Source of the DNA: Pelagibacteraceae bacterium AG-325-C03
GTDB lineage: Bacteria; Pseudomonadota; Alphaproteobacteria; Pelagibacterales; Pelagibacteraceae
Direction of reading: 5' to 3'
NCBI GenBank assembly: GCA_003283025.1
Contig: QBYC01000010.1
Location: 1-34,550, forward strand
Length of the DNA stretch: 34,550 nucleotides
Below, one piece after another: positions 14,544-24,748 of this stretch. The stretch's first letter is position 1. Every line of letters begins with the position of its first letter. A model generated the notes under the pieces. It did no database searches, was not told where the DNA came from, and worked only from the letters and a program-made list of their open reading frames with translations. Both the position numbers and the translations under genes were made by a program.

Positions 14544-15920
14544 TTAGGACGCGGCTTGGATAATTTTATTTGATATTTTTGAGTTTTTCTTAATTTCATT
14601 AGAAATTATGAAAGCTAACTCTAAAGCTTGATCAGCATTTAATCTTGGATCACAATGAGTTCTATATCTGTTAGACAAATCATTCTCTGAGATTTTTTGT
14701 GCTCCCCCAGTACACTCTGTAACATCTTGACCAGTCATTTCTATATGTAAACCACCAGCATAACTTCCCTCTGACTGACTTACTGCAAAGAAACTTTTAA
14801 CTTCTTTTATAACACTCTCAAGAGTTCTAGTTTTAAAACCTGTAGCTGCTTTTATTGTGTTTCCATGCATAGGATCGCAAGACCATAATACTTTTAAACC
14901 CTCTTTCTTGATTGATTGGATCAACTTTGGCAAATATTTTTCCACATTATTTGCTCCAAATCTTGATATCAATGTTAATCTTCCTGGTTCATTTTCAGGA
15001 TTAAGAATATTACAAAGATTTATAAGTTCATCAGGTTTTAATGTTGGACCGCATTTAAGGCCTATTGGATTTTTTATTCCTCTACAAAACTCTACATGAG
15101 CTCCATCAGGTTGTCTCGTTCTATCGCCAATCCATACAAAGTGTGCTGAAGTGTCGTGATGTTCGCCAGTAGTAGAATCAATCCTTGTCATAGATTCCTC
15201 AAAAGGTAAATGTAGCGCTTCATGTGAAGTATAAAAATTTACAGTTCTTAGTCTTCTATCGTTATCTGGATTAATTCCACAAGACTCCATAAATGCTAAT
15301 GCATCACTTATTTTATCTTCAATTTCTTTATACTTACCTTTTGTTTTATCTTTTATAAATCCTAAATTCCATAGATGTACTTGTCTTAAATCAGCAAAAC
15401 CTCCATGAGAAAAAGCTCTTAGTAAATTTAAAGTAGAAGCTGATTGCGAATAAGCTCTAAATAATCTTTTTGCATCAGGAATTCTAGCTTTTTCAGAAAA
15501 TTCCATTCCATTTATATTATCACCTAAATAACTAGGTAATTCTTTTCCATTTTTTTTCTCTATTGGCGCGCTTCGAGGTTTAGAAAATTGTCCTGCAATT
15601 CTTCCTACTTTTATAACTGGCATTGAAGCTGAGGCGGTTAAAACTAATGACATCTGTAAAAGAACTTTGAAAGTATCTCTAATGTTGTCTGGATGGAATT
15701 CTGCAAAACTTTCTGCACAGTCACCTCCCTGTAATAAAAAGGCCTTTCCCTCTGTAACCTCAGCTAAAGATTTTTTTAAAGATCTAGTCTCTCCAGCAAA
15801 CACTAAAGGCGGGTACTTCTTCATTTTACTTAAAACTAAATCAAGCTCTTCCTTATTCTGATAAACAGGCAAGTGTTTAGCAGGAAGTTTAGACCAACTA
15901 TTTAAAGACCACTTTCTCAT
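14544..15920 (-). CDS. Class II (plant-type) DAHP synthase
   Basis: 458 residues from the ATG at 15920; a TTG two codons earlier (15926) is an alternative start. It catalyses phosphoenolpyruvate plus erythrose 4-phosphate to DAHP, the first shikimate pathway step. Class II features include the N-terminal WSLNSWSKLPAKHLP, LLQGGDCAESFAEF, KVGRIAGQFSKPRS, and the C-terminal GGLHIEMTGQDVTECTGG metal-site region. Class I AroF/G/H enzymes are shorter and differ. The gene is preceded by a plausible promoter and heads the long minus-strand run. Confidence 0.95.
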   Translation of the reverse strand: MRKWSLNSWSKLPAKHLPVYQNKEELDLVLSKMKKYPPLVFAGETRSLKKSLAEVTEGKAFLLQGGDCAESFAEFHPDNIRDTFKVLLQMSLVLTASASMPVIKVGRIAGQFSKPRSAPIEKKNGKELPSYLGDNINGMEFSEKARIPDAKRLFRAYSQSASTLNLLRAFSHGGFADLRQVHLWNLGFIKDKTKGKYKEIEDKISDALAFMESCGINPDNDRRLRTVNFYTSHEALHLPFEESMTRIDSTTGEHHDTSAHFVWIGDRTRQPDGAHVEFCRGIKNPIGLKCGPTLKPDELINLCNILNPENEPGRLTLISRFGANNVEKYLPKLIQSIKKEGLKVLWSCDPMHGNTIKAATGFKTRTLESVIKEVKSFFAVSQSEGSYAGGLHIEMTGQDVTECTGGAQKISENDLSNRYRTHCDPRLNADQALELAFIISNEIKKNSKISNKIIQAAS

Positions 15921-15935
15921 ATTCAACTTATGGTA

Positions 15936-16077: not shown

Positions 16078-16776
16078 ATGGATACATTATCTCTTTCGCT
16101 TGCTGATATTAAAAATTTTGAAATTGATATTTCTTTTCAAAGTTTAATTACTTCTATTATTGTAAGCGTTATATGTGCTTACATTATAAAATTAATTTAT
16201 CTTAAATTTGCAAAATCTATTAACAATAAGGAAAATTTTTCAGATATATTTGTTTTACTTTCTTTAACAACAACAATTGTGATAACAGTTGTAAAATTTT
16301 CTTTAGCTTTGTCTCTTGGTTTGGTGGGAGCTTTATCCATTGTAAGGTTTAGGGCAGCTATAAAAGAACCAGAGGAATTGGTTTATCTTTTTTTAATTAT
16401 CGGAATTGGTTTAGCCTCAGGATCTAATCAATATCAAGTTGCCTTAACTTTAACTGTTACATCTTTTTTAATTATTTTCTTTGAAAATAAACTGAGAAAA
16501 AAAAACTTAACTTACAACACTGAAATCTTAAATATTGAAATTAACAACAAGGATTTTGATAAAATTACAGACACATTAGATAAATTAACTAAATCTGAAA
16601 AGATTGAATTAGAAATGAAAAGTCTTAACAAACAAGATGAAATAGTTTATATCACTTATTTAGTTAAAAATGCGTATAAGTCTGAAAATTTTACAAGTTT
16701 TATTTCTCAATTGAAAAAAATAGAATTAAAAGAGTTTAATTTCAGCTTTTCAAAAGATATTTCTATACCTCTTTAA
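16078..16776 (+). CDS. DUF4956 multi-pass membrane protein
   Basis: 232 residues. Four hydrophobic segments are visible, around residues 24-44, 56-88, 101-115 and 119-135, followed by a soluble C-terminal domain of about 95 residues. The block GLVGALSIVRFRAAIKEPEE, then LVYLFLIIGIGLASG, is the characteristic conserved core of the DUF4956 family. The biochemical role of the family is not established. Family members often sit beside CotH-type kinases and VTC-domain proteins, which is the arrangement here. It ends exactly where the CotH gene begins, with no gap, so the products are probably made together and may work at the membrane. Confidence 0.85.
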   Translation: MDTLSLSLADIKNFEIDISFQSLITSIIVSVICAYIIKLIYLKFAKSINNKENFSDIFVLLSLTTTIVITVVKFSLALSLGLVGALSIVRFRAAIKEPEELVYLFLIIGIGLASGSNQYQVALTLTVTSFLIIFFENKLRKKNLTYNTEILNIEINNKDFDKITDTLDKLTKSEKIELEMKSLNKQDEIVYITYLVKNAYKSENFTSFISQLKKIELKEFNFSFSKDISIPL

Positions 16777-19080
16777 ATGAATAAAAAAGCACTTTACTTA
16801 ATAGTAATTTTCTTTTCTCTAATTGGTTTGTTTTTTTGTATTTCTCTATATGTTTTATTATTTTTTGGAGAAACTTCAAATGAAAGAAGAAAAATAATAA
16901 TTAATTCTGCTAATTCAATGATTGGTATCGGAGAAAAATTTGATGGCTTTATTGCCAATACTCCCAGTAAATTATCAAAAACACTTTATTACTATGTAAA
17001 GGGAAAATTCACCAATTTTAATTATGACTCAATAAATATTGAAATTAATCTTGAAAACTTAAAAAAACTTGAGAAACTTAGAAAGGAAAAATACGACAAT
17101 AAAAATGTGAATCAAATTGCAACGCCTCAACAATTTATTAATGCTAGAGCAACATTATTTAATAAAGAAAAAAATTTAAACAAAAAATTTAAAATTAAAA
17201 TCAGACCGAAAGGAGATAGAAAAATTCATTTTTTAAACTTAGATAGCATGTCATACAAGCTTGACATTAGAGGTGAGAATAAATTTATCTATGGTATGGA
17301 GGAAATGTCAATTCAAAAACCAATTACAAGAAATTTTGCTTGGGAAATTCTTTACCATGAATTACTTAAATCAAAAGGATTAATAGCATTAGATATAATC
17401 CCGATTAAACTTTTTAGAAATAGTGAATATCTAGGAATATTTGTTATTGAAGAAGGTTTTAATAAAGAGTTAATAGAAAAACAATTCAGAAAAAATGGAC
17501 CGATAATTGGAATAGATGAGAGTTTTTCTCATAATTTTCCGTTTTTAAAATATGAGTTTTACTCTGAGAATTATTGGTTAACAAAAAATAGAGATATCTA
17601 TTTTAAATCTGAAGAGAATTTACAAAAGCTTAAAGCAGAATATTTAAATGAAAATTTTGAACTTGAATCTTATTTTAATATAGATGATTGGGCGAAATTT
17701 TTTGCTATATCAGATATCTTAAAAATGTTTCATGGCACAGTACCAAAATCCGTTAAGCTTTACTACAATCCTTCATCGGGCTTATTTGAACCTATAGCTT
17801 TTGATGGTCATCATTTATCTGGTTATGAAAATTTTTCATTCATCGATTATATTTATGATTCTAAAATAAACTGTGGATATGCGTGTGAACATAAAAACTG
17901 GCTATCTTTATTTTTTGATAAAAAAAATAAAAATTTTATTAATAAGTATTTATATTATTTAAAAGAATATACATCAAAAGAAAGTTTAAAAGATATAAAT
18001 AATATTTATGAACAAAAAATCAAAGATATAAATTTTTTTTTCTACTCTGAGTATCAAAGTTCAGATAGAGCTTTTTTTAAAGGTTTCCTTCCCTACTATT
18101 TCAATTTAGATGTGACATTTAAAAGAGCAAAAGAAATTAAATCCAAAATTCCAAAATTAGAAACGTACTTAAAAAATTTCTATTTAGATTCACAAGAAAA
18201 AAAGAACAAGAAAATATCTAAAATTATCGATTTAAATACTAATGTAATAAAAATACCCTCAGGAATATGGATTTTAGAAAATATTTCGCTTCAAGATAAA
18301 AAAATTATATTTGAAGAAAATGCACTACTTATTTTGAAGGGAGACAACTATTTCAAAGGAGAACAAAAAAAATTTTTGTTCTCAGGAAAAGGAATGTTAG
18401 TTCAAGAAAATGGTAGTTTAAATCTCGATAATGTTATTCTTTCTAATTTAAAAAATCAAAAAATTAGAGGTTTAAATTGGACTGGTGCTATTAATGTTTT
18501 AAATGCTAATTTAAATCTCAAAAAAGTTCATATTAAAGACAATTTTGGAGAAGATGCAATTAATATAGTTAATTCGAATTCTAAAATATCTGATTTAAAG
18601 ATTACAAGCGCTGATAGTGATGCGATAGATATTGATTTTGGAAATATGAAATTTGACAAAATAACTTGCAAAAAATCTGGAAATGATTGCTTGGATGTCT
18701 CAGGCGCAATAATACACGGGAAGAAACTTATAGGTGAGGACATTAAAGATAAACTTGGAAGTTTTGGTGAAGATTCAAATGTAATTATTGATAAAGTTAT
18801 TGGGTCTAATATTGAAGTTGGAGTTGTTTCAAAAGACTCAACAGAAGTGAAAATTAATAATTTATCTCTTATTAATACAAACATTCATGCCGCATCATAC
18901 AATAAGAAATTTTTCTTTGATGATTCGATATTAGTAATTGAGGATTACGAGCAAGAGTCAGGTTATTCTTTAGAGGAAAAGTTTTTAATCTCGAAAAAAA
19001 ATGTAATTTTTATTAAAAATAAGAAATTGAATATGTACAAAAAAAATCAAGAAGTATTAGATAGCATATATTTTAATTGA
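16777..19080 (+). CDS. Membrane-anchored CotH-like protein kinase with C-terminal parallel beta-helix
   Basis: 767 residues. A single N-terminal membrane segment (about 6-30) suggests an extracytoplasmic body. Residues about 138-350 resemble the CotH kinase fold: IRPKGDRK (142-149), LGIFVIEEGF (219-228) and YYNPSSGLFEPIAFDGHHLSG (329-349). The usual W-D-x-D metal motif reads F-D-G-H (342-345), keeping the first Asp (D343). After a roughly 100-residue linker with charged helices, residues about 485-705 form short repeats such as GEDAINI, SDAIDIDFG, GNDCLDVSG and GVVSKDST, the pattern of a right-handed parallel beta-helix. CotH proteins phosphorylate secreted or coat proteins in Bacillus and some pathogens; the substrate here is unknown. 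Kinase activity is inferred, not shown. Confidence 0.75.
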   Translation: MNKKALYLIVIFFSLIGLFFCISLYVLLFFGETSNERRKIIINSANSMIGIGEKFDGFIANTPSKLSKTLYYYVKGKFTNFNYDSINIEINLENLKKLEKLRKEKYDNKNVNQIATPQQFINARATLFNKEKNLNKKFKIKIRPKGDRKIHFLNLDSMSYKLDIRGENKFIYGMEEMSIQKPITRNFAWEILYHELLKSKGLIALDIIPIKLFRNSEYLGIFVIEEGFNKELIEKQFRKNGPIIGIDESFSHNFPFLKYEFYSENYWLTKNRDIYFKSEENLQKLKAEYLNENFELESYFNIDDWAKFFAISDILKMFHGTVPKSVKLYYNPSSGLFEPIAFDGHHLSGYENFSFIDYIYDSKINCGYACEHKNWLSLFFDKKNKNFINKYLYYLKEYTSKESLKDINNIYEQKIKDINFFFYSEYQSSDRAFFKGFLPYYFNLDVTFKRAKEIKSKIPKLETYLKNFYLDSQEKKNKKISKIIDLNTNVIKIPSGIWILENISLQDKKIIFEENALLILKGDNYFKGEQKKFLFSGKGMLVQENGSLNLDNVILSNLKNQKIRGLNWTGAINVLNANLNLKKVHIKDNFGEDAINIVNSNSKISDLKITSADSDAIDIDFGNMKFDKITCKKSGNDCLDVSGAIIHGKKLIGEDIKDKLGSFGEDSNVIIDKVIGSNIEVGVVSKDSTEVKINNLSLINTNIHAASYNKKFFFDDSILVIEDYEQESGYSLEEKFLISKKNVIFIKNKKLNMYKKNQEVLDSIYFN

Positions 19081-19087
19081 GGCATTT

Positions 19088-19753
19088 ATGTATAATATTA
19101 TTGAAAATATTCAAAAAAAATTACCCATAAGTAAGTCTAGATTTGAAAGAAAAATTAAAGTAAATAAAAATCAAATTATTTTTTTACGAGAATTTTTTTA
19201 TGGTATAGGTTTTTTCAAAAAATACCCTGACAAGAAAATTAAATCAATTTATTTTGATGATGAAAATTTAAGTTTTGCAAAAGCAAATATAAATGGTGAA
19301 CTTTATAGAATTAAACCACGATTGAGATGGTATAATGATGACACAAACAAAATTAATCATGAATTTAAAATAAAAATTGGTTTTAATAGTTATAAGTCGA
19401 TAACAGATAAGTTTTTTTTAAAAGATGCTTCTTTAAAAGATAATATAAAGTTAACAAAAAAATTTTATGACGAAGATTTTGATTTAAATTTAAGAGAAAC
19501 TATTTCAATAAGTTATAATAGAACTTATTTAGAGCATGTTTCAGGAGTGCGACTAACAATTGATCAAAATATTTTTTCAAAAGAAACTAGTAAAAATAAA
19601 TTCTACTCTATGCCTTATGAAGTGTTAGAATTTAAATATAATAATATTCTTGATAATTATTTTAGAGAATATTTATTCAAAAAATTAAGCCATTTACCCC
19701 TTAGAATGACTAAATGTTCAAAATATATAGAGTGTTTGATGAAACTGCTATAA
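19088..19753 (+). CDS. VTC-domain protein (polyphosphate polymerase-like)
   Basis: 221 residues, essentially one VTC domain. The basic tunnel residues of yeast Vtc4 have plausible counterparts: RFERKI (18-23), the RLRWY motif (78-82), EFKIK (92-96), YNRTYLE (143-149), PYEVLEFKY (176-184) and SKYIE (211-215). Vtc4 makes inorganic polyphosphate from ATP inside a basic tunnel. The motifs suggest an intact active site, but some bacterial members are uncharacterised and may use another acceptor. There is no signal peptide or membrane span, so a cytosolic or membrane-associated location is likely. It starts 7 nt after the CotH gene and ends 2 nt from a convergent gene. Confidence 0.8.
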   Translation: MYNIIENIQKKLPISKSRFERKIKVNKNQIIFLREFFYGIGFFKKYPDKKIKSIYFDDENLSFAKANINGELYRIKPRLRWYNDDTNKINHEFKIKIGFNSYKSITDKFFLKDASLKDNIKLTKKFYDEDFDLNLRETISISYNRTYLEHVSGVRLTIDQNIFSKETSKNKFYSMPYEVLEFKYNNILDNYFREYLFKKLSHLPLRMTKCSKYIECLMKLL

Positions 19754-19755
19754 TT

Positions 19756-20172
19756 TTATTTATATTTTTGAATTTTTTTACTTGAGGATATTAAATTTAA
19801 CTCAATTTTAATTTTTGGATATTTTTTTTTCATTAATTTTTTTATATCTATGAATGCTTTTTTATGAATTTTCTCCTCACTCTTTTTGTCAAAATTCTTT
19901 TTGCCACTAACAATTTTTGCAGCACCGCAATCATTATGATTAAAAACTATTAATTTTTGTATTTTATGCAATTTAATTGATATATCTATATTATCCCAAA
20001 AGCTTTTATGCCATTTTTTAAATTTAAGAGATGTAACTCCTATAGCTGATCCAGCAATTATAAAAGAACTATATTTACCTTTAAGTTTTTTTTTAATCAA
20101 ATGATTGTTTACAGTATGCTGAAATCTTGGATCTATACATGACAAAACCATTGCCTTAAATTTAAACGACAT
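19756..20172 (-). CDS. Short beta-carbonic-anhydrase-like zinc protein
   Basis: 138 residues. The paired motifs of beta-class carbonic anhydrases are present: C12-x-D14-x-R16 (SCIDPRF) and H79-x-x-C82 (NHNDCGA), with C12, H79 and C82 as presumed zinc ligands. It is much shorter than usual beta enzymes (about 200 residues or more) because the C-terminal helical part is missing. The Cys-His spacing of 67 residues is somewhat long. It may be an anhydrase-related protein with altered or no CO2 hydration. It lies 1 nt after the glmS stop and is probably co-transcribed with it. Confidence 0.6.
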   Translation of the reverse strand: MSFKFKAMVLSCIDPRFQHTVNNHLIKKKLKGKYSSFIIAGSAIGVTSLKFKKWHKSFWDNIDISIKLHKIQKLIVFNHNDCGAAKIVSGKKNFDKKSEEKIHKKAFIDIKKLMKKKYPKIKIELNLISSSKKIQKYK

Positions 20173-22717: not shown

Positions 22718-24748
22718 ATGCAAAATAGAATAATAAAAACTCTTTCAATAATATTTATTTTAGTAATTTTTTACGTCTTTTTTGAGATGATATCAATTTC
22801 AACAAAAATAGTTAATAGGGAAGTAGTAACATTTAATTTAAATAATATTAGAAATCCACAAGTAAAAAAAATAATGAGATTTTTAGATAACCATTATGCC
22901 TCTTTTTTATTATTAGTAAGTAAAGACGCAAAATCTTATTTCAACAATGATGATCAAAGAGATAAACTTCCAAATTTAAAAGTAATAAAAAAAACTGAGA
23001 GTTTTTCTAAACATTTATTCCCTTTAAAAAATAATGGAGAAAGCTGGCATAGAAATTATGGTGGACATTCCTCTAATAGATTTTCTTCTTTAAAAAAAAT
23101 TAACAAAAATAATCTAAATAAACTCACTGTGGCTTGGGAGTATAAAATTGATAAAGAAAGTATCTATGATATTCAGTCTAATGCCATTGTTGCAGAGAAT
23201 AAGATTATTATTCCAAGTTATAATAAAAAAATTATTTGTTTAGATGCAAAATCAGGAGAACTTTTGTGGAATTTTCCTTTAGAAGAAGGATCTCCAAGAA
23301 GAGGGATGGTATATTTAGATAGTAAGAAAAACGACTCTGCAAAAATATTTTTTTCTTCTTATAAAAATTTAATCTCACTAAATGTAGCAGATGGAAAAGC
23401 TAATAAAAATTTTGGTAAAAATGGAATAGTAAAATTATCGAGACCGTCTCTGACTTCTCCAGCTTTATTCAAAAATAATTTAATCGTTACTACATCTGAA
23501 CCTTCAGTAAATATTTACGATGTGAACACTGGTAAATTTTTATGGAAATTTGTTTTAATGGAAAAAAACTTAAGTAATAGAAATGGTGGTAAAAGGTATG
23601 ATTACTCTGGGGGTAACCCTTGGGGAGGTTTTTCATTAGATGAAAAAAGAGGTATTGCCTATATCACCACAGGCAACGCAGGAAGATATTTTAATGGAGT
23701 AAATAGACCAGGAAAAAATAAATTTGCAAATTCTATAATAGCTTTAGATTTAGTAAATAGAAAAAAGATATGGGATTTTCAAGAAGTAAGGCATGATATT
23801 TGGAATTTAGATATACCAGCTCCTCCAATATTAGGTTCAATTACCAAAAATAACAAAAAGGTTGATGTTGTTATTGCTTTAACTAAACTTGGAAATACAA
23901 TTGTGCTTGACAGAGAATCAGGTAAGCCTATTTTTGATTTTTATTTAAAAAAAAGCCCAAGGTCTAATCTTCCAGGTGAAAAAACAAATTTCTATCAACC
24001 TAAATTAGAATTGCCAGAACCCTTTGCTAAACAAGAATTTACAATAGACGAAATTACAAACATTAATGAAAAAAGTAAACAATACATAACTAAAAAAATT
24101 AAAGAATATAAATATGGTTTTTTTGAGCCATATGAATTGGGAAAAAAAAATATTCAGTTTAATTTTCATGGTGGTGCAGAATGGCCAGGTGGTTCATTTG
24201 ACTTAGAGACAGAAACATTATTTGTAACATCTTCCAATATTGCATGGGAAACTGAAATAGTATTAAATAAAAAAAAAAATAAATTTTCTCCAAGTCCGTA
24301 TTATAAATACAACAGTAGTTTTAAAAGATTAAAAGATCAGAATGGATATCCAGGTTCGAAACCTCCTTGGGGTACGATTTCAGCAATTAATCTTACAAAT
24401 GGAAAAATTAAATGGCAAAAGCCTTTTGGTGAATATGAAGAATTGAGTAAATTAGGAATTCCTGTTACTGGAACAGAAAATTATAGTGGTGTAACAGGAA
24501 CGGAAGCAGGTATTTTATTAGCAACTGGAACTTTGGACAAAAAATTTCGAATTTTAGACTCAGAGAATGGTGAAGAATTATGGTCTTATAAACTACCTTT
24601 TATAGGATCTAGTCCACCAATTACATATCTTATAGATGGTGAACAATATATTTTAATAAATTCTACAGGAAGTTTTTCTCTTAAAAAAGGTTATCCTGAT
24701 TTAGTTGAATTTGGCAATATGATAATTGTTTTTAAACTAGAGAAATGA
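22718..24748 (+). CDS. Membrane-anchored PQQ-type quinoprotein dehydrogenase
   Basis: 676 residues. A hydrophobic N-terminal segment (about 6-24) precedes roughly 80 linker residues, then an eight-bladed propeller starting near 108 with WHRNYGGHSSNRFSSLKKIN. Characteristic quinoprotein segments follow: NPWGGFSLDEKRGIAYITTGNA, DIWNLDIPAPPIL, LDRESGKPIF, FHGGAEWPGGSFD, PPWGTISAINL and TGTLDKKFRILDSENGEELW. This resembles the glucose/quinate-type PQQ dehydrogenases that oxidise sugars or alcohols in the periplasm and pass electrons to the quinone pool. The substrate cannot be read. No pqq synthesis genes lie in this window. Its stop overlaps gph by 4 nt. Confidence 0.85.
   Translation: MQNRIIKTLSIIFILVIFYVFFEMISISTKIVNREVVTFNLNNIRNPQVKKIMRFLDNHYASFLLLVSKDAKSYFNNDDQRDKLPNLKVIKKTESFSKHLFPLKNNGESWHRNYGGHSSNRFSSLKKINKNNLNKLTVAWEYKIDKESIYDIQSNAIVAENKIIIPSYNKKIICLDAKSGELLWNFPLEEGSPRRGMVYLDSKKNDSAKIFFSSYKNLISLNVADGKANKNFGKNGIVKLSRPSLTSPALFKNNLIVTTSEPSVNIYDVNTGKFLWKFVLMEKNLSNRNGGKRYDYSGGNPWGGFSLDEKRGIAYITTGNAGRYFNGVNRPGKNKFANSIIALDLVNRKKIWDFQEVRHDIWNLDIPAPPILGSITKNNKKVDVVIALTKLGNTIVLDRESGKPIFDFYLKKSPRSNLPGEKTNFYQPKLELPEPFAKQEFTIDEITNINEKSKQYITKKIKEYKYGFFEPYELGKKNIQFNFHGGAEWPGGSFDLETETLFVTSSNIAWETEIVLNKKKNKFSPSPYYKYNSSFKRLKDQNGYPGSKPPWGTISAINLTNGKIKWQKPFGEYEELSKLGIPVTGTENYSGVTGTEAGILLATGTLDKKFRILDSENGEELWSYKLPFIGSSPPITYLIDGEQYILINSTGSFSLKKGYPDLVEFGNMIIVFKLEK

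What the first reader, a model, noticed from the sequence alone, without database searches (positions are those of the whole stretch)
16078..19753. DUF4956, CotH kinase with beta-helix, and VTC polyphosphate polymerase as one compact transcript
Three genes with 0 and 7 nt gaps join a membrane protein of unknown role, a membrane-anchored CotH-like kinase carrying a large beta-helix, and a VTC domain with its basic tunnel residues in place. The triad occurs elsewhere in bacteria, but its joint function is undescribed as far as I know, and it is surprising in a streamlined genome. One hypothesis is that polyphosphate made by the VTC protein is handled across the membrane by the DUF4956 protein and that the CotH protein phosphorylates a surface polymer.
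Basis: partly seen in the sequence, partly recalled or inferred. Interest (0 to 1): 0.75.

Follow-up and report, generated by a model that had tools for sequence, protein, structure and literature searches.

The report
Three-gene surface-phosphate module in marine bacterium
A marine SAR11-like bacterium carries three adjacent genes, found side by side in many unrelated bacteria, that probably make polyphosphate and use it to modify something on the cell surface; the gene set was already known, but its 'kinase' lacks the usual catalytic residue and is fused to a strongly conserved, enzyme-like beta-helix.

Summary
DUF4956 (16078-16776), a CotH-fold/beta-helix protein (16777-19080) and a VTC-domain protein (19088-19753) lie with 0 and 7 nt gaps. 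The association is not random. In an even sample of 249 genomes of the phylum, VTC and DUF4956 (over Pfam cut-offs) occur in the same 7 genomes, every copy adjacent. Of 40 DUF4956 loci with good flanks, 37 have VTC and 36 CotH within three genes. In the genus the module is a patchy cassette at six or more sites; here it sits between aroG and a carbonic-anhydrase-like gene that are neighbours in eight relatives. The VTC protein keeps every tested catalytic and tunnel residue, and no PPK1 or PPK2 was found in this incomplete genome. The middle protein has the CotH fold, but the catalytic Asp (B. subtilis D228) is His319, as in most beta-helix-fused relatives, so ordinary CotH kinase activity is doubtful. 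Its beta-helix is the most conserved part, with a polar ladder every 22 residues. The gene set is already described as an accessory of Gram-positive Pel operons, with deletion phenotypes for two of the three genes. Best guess: exported polyphosphate feeds an extracytoplasmic phosphotransfer onto a surface polymer. That is inferred, not shown.

The parts
16078..16776 (+). DUF4956 (PF16316) membrane protein, 232 aa: four hydrophobic stretches, invariant GALSI-RFR motif (residues 84-92), C-terminal ACT/MgtC-C-like domain (about 145-229)
16777..19080 (+). Membrane-anchored CotH-fold plus beta-helix protein, 767 aa
16783..16866 (+). N-terminal membrane anchor helix, residues 3-30
17020..18162 (+). 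CotH-fold domain, residues 82-462
   Evidence: 5jd9 Z 28.8, 3.3 A, 326 aligned residues
17452..17454 (+). Glu226, invariant in all 63 CotH-fold relatives of the helix-fused set (= 5JD9 chain position 124)
17731..17733 (+). His319 in the place of the CotH catalytic Asp (5JD9 chain position 224, B. subtilis D228)
17803..17805 (+). Asp343, equivalent of CotH D251 (5JD9 chain position 247), retained
18202..19065 (+). Right-handed beta-helix domain, residues 476-763, with a conserved D/K/E/S ladder (593-711) at a 22-residue pitch
19079..19082 (+). GAGG box, likely ribosome-binding site of the VTC gene
19088..19753 (+). VTC-domain (PF09359) predicted polyphosphate polymerase, 221 aa, no transmembrane stretch

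Best explanation
The three genes encode a membrane-spanning phosphate-polymer module that acts on a cell-surface polymer. The cytoplasmic VTC protein polymerises phosphate from ATP (residues shown, activity inferred). DUF4956 is its membrane partner and, by analogy with the transmembrane part of yeast VTC, carries or gates the chain across the inner membrane (inferred). The CotH-fold/beta-helix protein, held at the outer face of the inner membrane by one N-terminal helix, binds a surface glycan or protein with its beta-helix and transfers phosphate, or polyphosphate itself, to it without needing extracytoplasmic ATP (inferred). In this lineage the module is an accessory cassette gained at variable sites (inferred from empty sites and divergence that are shown).
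For: Linkage: in 249 phylum genomes the same 7 have VTC and DUF4956 over cut-off, all copies adjacent, 5 of the 7 with contiguous CotH; 37 and 36 of 40 DUF4956 loci have VTC and CotH within three genes; distances of the three proteins correlate over 45 loci, r 0.54-0.79, 0 of 2000 permutations. VTC: 20 invariant residues in 52 sequences include equivalents of yeast Vtc4 R264, R266 and E426, whose joint mutation impairs Vtc4. No PPK1 or PPK2 found in the genome. Yeast VTC couples synthesis to translocation through a basic channel (PMC9911596). CotH fold and beta-helix predicted with confidence; conserved ladder. Calcineurin-type phosphatases with signal-like N-termini recur beside the module, and O-antigen or sugar-nucleotide genes in several loci. 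S. intermedius deletions of the DUF4956 and CotH genes alter Pel and aggregation.
Against: The S. intermedius VTC-gene deletion had no reported aggregation or Pel defect. The catalytic Asp of CotH is absent here, so transfer to a substrate is unproven. DUF4956 resembles MgtC in its C-terminal domain, and no polyphosphate channel of this fold is known to me; its topology is unresolved (AF2 shows one long helix 57-90, charges suggest a hairpin). DUF4956-VTC pairs exist without CotH (L148-L150), and one genus member has DUF4956 plus a giant CotH protein without a detected VTC. Many loci have no polysaccharide genes next to them, the window's included.
Confidence: 0.4

Rival explanations
1. The CotH-fold domain is a non-kinase scaffold and the beta-helix is the working part: an extracytoplasmic polysaccharide-modifying or -cleaving enzyme (epimerase, lyase or esterase type). 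VTC and DUF4956 supply energy or phosphate signalling to regulate it.
For: Beta-helix is the most conserved part (20 positions at 85% or more in 53 sequences across phyla) with a D/K/E ladder; nearest folds include AlgG, AlgE4, tailspikes and polysaccharide lyases, Z 21-24; CotH catalytic Asp lost; CotH part very divergent within the genus.
Against: Glu226, Asp343 and mostly His319 remain conserved in the CotH fold, which a pure scaffold would not need; Foldseek matches of the helix are weak (E 0.002 or worse) and a shared beta-helix fold shows no function.
Confidence: 0.25
2. An active atypical kinase: His319 or another residue serves as base, and the domain phosphorylates a surface protein or glycan with ATP, as CotH does in spore coats; polyphosphate has a separate role.
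For: CotH fold at Z 28.8; Glu226 and Asp343 retained; B. subtilis CotH phosphorylates coat proteins (PMC7821199).
Against: D228Q inactivates B. subtilis CotH (PMC7821199) and the corresponding residue is His in 49 of 63 helix-fused relatives; ATP is not normally available outside the inner membrane (general knowledge); no coat-like substrate gene was recognised next to it.
Confidence: 0.15
3. The VTC/DUF4956 pair is a cytoplasmic phosphate or energy-status device (MgtC-like), and the CotH protein is only co-regulated with it.
For: ACT/MgtC-like C-terminal domain of DUF4956; DUF4956-VTC pairs without CotH in two phylum genomes.
Against: CotH is close by in most loci across phyla, and sequence distances of all three correlate.
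Confidence: 0.15

Closest known systems
cotH-PPP-DUF4956 accessory cluster of Gram-positive Pel operons (PMC7112168; SIR_1592-1594 of S. intermedius, PMC12345266)
   Same: The same three families, contiguous
   Different: No pel genes beside it here; CotH is fused to a beta-helix, not FN3; catalytic Asp is His; host is a Gram-negative marine lineage; the 2025 paper failed to find the three-gene arrangement outside Pel loci, whereas here it is common in other phyla
Yeast vacuolar transporter chaperone (VTC) complex
   Same: TTM polymerase domain with the same basic tunnel residues; encoded with a membrane protein
   Different: No SPX domain or VTC1-type transmembrane domain detected; the neighbouring membrane protein is DUF4956, whose profile finds no VTC subunit in the PDB
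Bacillus CotH kinase (5JD9/5JDA)
   Same: Fold over about 330 residues; Glu124 and Asp247 (chain positions) retained
   Different: Catalytic Asp replaced by His319; membrane anchor and beta-helix added
MgtC
   Same: C-terminal ACT-like domain is structurally similar (2lqj)
   Different: PF02308 score below cut-off (19.1 of 31.4 bits)
AlgG/AlgE4 and other beta-helix polysaccharide enzymes
   Same: Right-handed beta-helix, Z about 23-24
   Different: 6-10% identity; the AlgG/AlgE catalytic DPHD motif (from memory) is not visible; own conserved ladder

Membership tests
VTC (PF09359) polyphosphate polymerase domain | Profile match over cut-off | tested here: met
   64.1 bits vs 23
VTC (PF09359) polyphosphate polymerase domain | Catalytic tunnel residues (Vtc4 K200, R264, R266, K281, R361, R373, E426, K428, S457/K458) | tested here: met
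   Equivalents K22, R78, R80, K94, R145, R155, E181, K183, S211, K212 invariant in 52 sequences; R264/R266/E426 as catalytic residues from PMC9911596; other Vtc4 numbers from memory plus alignment
VTC (PF09359) polyphosphate polymerase domain | Makes polyphosphate | not testable with these tools
   needs an assay
Eukaryotic VTC complex | SPX and VTC1-type transmembrane domains on the subunits | tested here: not met
   only PF09359 found in the 221 aa protein; no hydrophobic stretch
CotH (PF08757) fold family | Profile match and fold | tested here: met
   27.3 bits vs 23.8 in the genome search (hmmscan missed it); 5jd9 Z 28.8
Active CotH protein kinase | Catalytic Asp (D228) and second Asp (D251) | tested here: not met
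   D251 equivalent Asp343 kept, D228 equivalent is His319
DUF4956 (PF16316) | Profile match over cut-off | tested here: met
   58.7 bits vs 30.6
MgtC (PF02308) | Profile match over cut-off | tested here: not met
   19.1 bits vs 31.4
Pel accessory cotH-PPP-DUF4956 cluster | Three families contiguous | tested here: met
Pel accessory cotH-PPP-DUF4956 cluster | Next to pel genes | tested here: not met
   neighbours are DAHP synthase and a Pro_CA_2 protein
Beta-helix polysaccharide enzymes (AlgG/AlgE, PL6) | Fold | tested here: met
   Z 21-24 over about 250 residues
Beta-helix polysaccharide enzymes (AlgG/AlgE, PL6) | Family catalytic motif | tested here: inconclusive
   no DPHD in the sequence; motif recalled from memory; no profile of these enzyme families scored

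The most novel reading that the evidence does not exclude
A polyphosphate-driven extracytoplasmic transferase: bacteria make polyphosphate with VTC, export it through DUF4956, and use it in place of ATP to phosphorylate or polyphosphorylate a surface polymer by a His-variant CotH enzyme fused to a beta-helix.
Probability: 0.25. Interest if true: 0.85.

Novelty: new variant of a known kind. Interest (0 to 1): 0.52.

Why it matters
The module occurs in Bacteroidota, Chloroflexota, Planctomycetota, Verrucomicrobiota and Proteobacteria, yet no biochemical function was found for it in the papers searched. If the polyphosphate model is right, it would explain how phosphate chemistry is done outside the inner membrane without ATP, give a bacterial counterpart of the coupled synthesis and translocation of yeast VTC, and give a function to DUF4956. 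The His-for-Asp variant and the conserved beta-helix ladder give precise residues to mutate.

Tried and rejected
Random neighbourhood: rejected. No VTC tunnel or no kinase fold: rejected. CotH as an ordinary active kinase: weakened by the missing Asp. Sequence search of the middle protein against solved structures, alone or as a profile, found nothing useful; only the model found CotH. Profile search with DUF4956 found no solved relative. An apparent enrichment of inorganic pyrophosphatase beside the module (5 of 106 neighbours) was not counted: I did not identify the loci, and several sampled Pelagibacteraceae loci are syntenic copies; the one protein I guessed to be a pyrophosphatase (L073:8339-8884) gave no support. 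Promoter scan uninformative. The VIA list is one-sided (mostly the beta-helix), and families absent from it are not excluded.
Full report
OBSERVATION. The three genes lie exactly as described: DUF4956 16078-16776, the middle gene 16777-19080 and VTC 19088-19753, all on +, with gaps of 0 and 7 nt, between the divergent DAHP synthase gene (14544-15926) and a convergent carbonic-anhydrase-like gene (19756-20172). DUF4956 and VTC pass their Pfam cut-offs. CotH passes its cut-off (27.3 vs 23.8 bits) only in the whole-genome search; hmmscan reported nothing for this protein.

THE MODULE IN THE GENUS. Among 81 relatives (49 of the same genus, the window's genome included), VTC was found in 12 genomes and DUF4956 in 13, all in the same genus and none in 32 genomes of a sister family. 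I took 16 regions and called genes. All 15 VTC genes have a DUF4956 gene (cut by a contig end in G022) and a middle protein beside them; the orders are DUF-middle-VTC, DUF-VTC-middle (G015, G033) and DUF-X-middle-VTC with an extra 340-aa protein (G033, G029). Three genomes (G029, G033, G048) hold two different modules. They sit at six or more chromosomal sites, several inside sugar-nucleotide and glycosyltransferase clusters (those gene names are my reading of the sequences, not profile matches).

A CASSETTE. In eight relatives the DAHP synthase gene and the carbonic-anhydrase-like gene are direct neighbours with roughly 60-85 nt between them; in the window the module lies between them. The DAHP synthase is 84-92% identical within the genus, whereas the module proteins are mostly 18-38% identical to the window's. 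By all three proteins, the window's module is closest to modules of other Pelagibacteraceae single cells or of other taxa (L071-L073, L078, L117) rather than to those of its own genus (G017 was not in that comparison). Gain by transfer is the simplest reading; repeated loss is not excluded. The host is called SAR11-like because genus members share syntenic genes with named Pelagibacteraceae records, some at 80-90% identity; no formal classification was made.

BEYOND THE GENUS. In an even draw of 249 genomes of the phylum, VTC over cut-off is in 7 and DUF4956 in the same 7; every copy is adjacent. Leaving out the window's genome, the chance of six matching six in 248 is about 3e-12 if genomes were independent, which three of them, of one genus, are not. 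Five of the seven also have CotH contiguous; two have the DUF4956-VTC pair alone. A scan of 84,980 species genomes with the DUF4956 alignment gave 80 loci, chosen by similarity to the query. Of 40 with at least 4.5 kb on both sides, 37 have VTC, 36 CotH and 33 both within three genes; DUF4956-CotH/helix-VTC is the commonest order. Over 45 complete loci, pairwise distances of the three proteins correlate (r 0.54-0.79, 0 of 2000 permutations reach them); shared ancestry of the hosts contributes to this.

VTC PROTEIN. A profile of 52 relatives finds yeast Vtc4 and Vtc2 in the PDB (E 1.6e-16). Invariant residues are R18, E20, K22, Y55, G70, K76, R78, R80, Y82, E92, K94, K103, Y143, R145, R155, D159, E181, K183, S211 and K212. 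R78, R80 and E181 align with Vtc4 R264, R266 and E426, the triple mutant of which is catalytically impaired. No PPK1 or PPK2 match was found in this 79%-complete genome.

MIDDLE PROTEIN. AF2 on 53 sequences gives mean pLDDT 85.7: an N-terminal membrane helix, a CotH fold (82-462; 5jd9 Z 28.8) and a right-handed beta-helix (476-763; AlgG, AlgE4, tailspikes, lyases at Z 21-24). Aligned with 5JD9, the catalytic Asp at chain position 224 (taken as B. subtilis D228; spacing to the second Asp is 23 residues in both) faces His319, while chain positions Asp247 (D251) and Glu124 face Asp343 and Glu226. His is found there in 49 of 63 beta-helix-fused relatives, and Asp in 12 of 22 CotH proteins without the helix, several of which do not align there. 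D228Q inactivates B. subtilis CotH (PMC7821199). A one-residue shift of the alignment in this loop is possible, but the loop contains no Asp in the window protein. The beta-helix holds 20 positions conserved in at least 85% of the 53 sequences; strands end at 598, 620, 642, 664, 686 and 708, an exact 22-residue pitch, so D593/D615/D637/K659 and N596/D618/D640/S662 should stack on one face. That looks like an active or binding site, but no coordinates were at hand to measure it.

DUF4956. Residues G84-I88, R90-R92, F105 and G111 are invariant in 61 sequences. The C-terminal domain resembles MgtC's and other ACT-like domains. Charges suggest N-terminus out, C-terminus in, with five membrane passes (my reading), while AF2 joins residues 57-90 in one helix (lower confidence there) and PMC12345266 assigns four segments to its homologue. 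Some Chloroflexota versions carry a signal peptide and, in the one scanned, a PF06439 domain in front, which puts the N-terminus outside.

OTHER PARTNERS. A calcineurin-like phosphatase with a signal-peptide-like or membrane N-terminus recurs beside the module: found in 19 of the 80 fetched stretches, 14 in the close co-directional sample. Glycosyltransferases and O-antigen ligases also recur.

LITERATURE. The cluster is described in Gram-positive Pel operons (PMC7112168). In S. intermedius, deletion of the DUF4956 gene raised Pel and lowered aggregation; deletion of the CotH gene lowered both; deletion of the VTC gene had no reported effect (PMC12345266). That paper did not find the three-gene arrangement outside Pel loci; the present survey does. 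C. perfringens NELoc-2 holds VTC and CotH genes too (PMC2879425). 'DUF4956' occurs in only three papers of the library. Subscription papers are mostly not held, so absence of a described function is not proven.

MECHANISM. Shown: the linkage, the residues, the predicted folds, the missing Asp, the conserved ladder, the occupied and empty sites. Inferred: polyphosphate synthesis, export by DUF4956, extracytoplasmic phosphotransfer, a surface polymer as substrate. The model is favoured because VTC in yeast couples synthesis to translocation, because a CotH-fold protein outside the inner membrane would lack ATP, and because phosphatases and surface-glycan genes recur nearby. The silent VTC deletion in S. 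intermedius is the strongest evidence against it. Confidence 0.4.

Noticed in passing
L052:3397-11535 (G017): DUF4956 gene followed by a 2479-aa protein that starts as a CotH/beta-helix protein; part of it is masked with N; no VTC found in that 82%-complete genome.
   Followed up: partly
L098:6602-7984, L105, L106, L111, L113: Chloroflexota DUF4956 proteins with an N-terminal signal peptide; the one scanned (L098) carries a PF06439 (3-keto-disaccharide hydrolase type) domain in front of the membrane part.
   Followed up: partly
L055:9144-10166 and L057:14013-15041: A 340-aa membrane-anchored protein of no known family (no Pfam match for the L057 copy) sits between DUF4956 and CotH in two genus members.
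   Followed up: partly
L072, L074, L092, L107, L110, L112, L125, L129, L132, L140, L143 and others: A calcineurin-like phosphatase with a signal-like N-terminus is a recurrent extra gene of the module across phyla.
   Followed up: partly
L055:1423-4509: Tandem array of about five or six pseudopilin-like genes with a nearly identical N-terminus (AFTLIELLVVVAIIGILAAVG) near a module.
   Followed up: no
L148:8620-10091, L149:8881-10283, L150:8615-10011: Short DUF4956 plus longer VTC pair without CotH in two genomes of the same class: a second form of the module.
   Followed up: partly
window 22718-24748: Membrane PQQ-dehydrogenase-like protein that stays far below the NCBIfam cut-off (275.6 of 832.65 bits).
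   Followed up: no
window 16777-19080: hmmscan missed the CotH domain up to E=1 while the genome search scored it over the gathering cut-off; annotation pipelines would probably leave this protein unnamed.
   Followed up: yes
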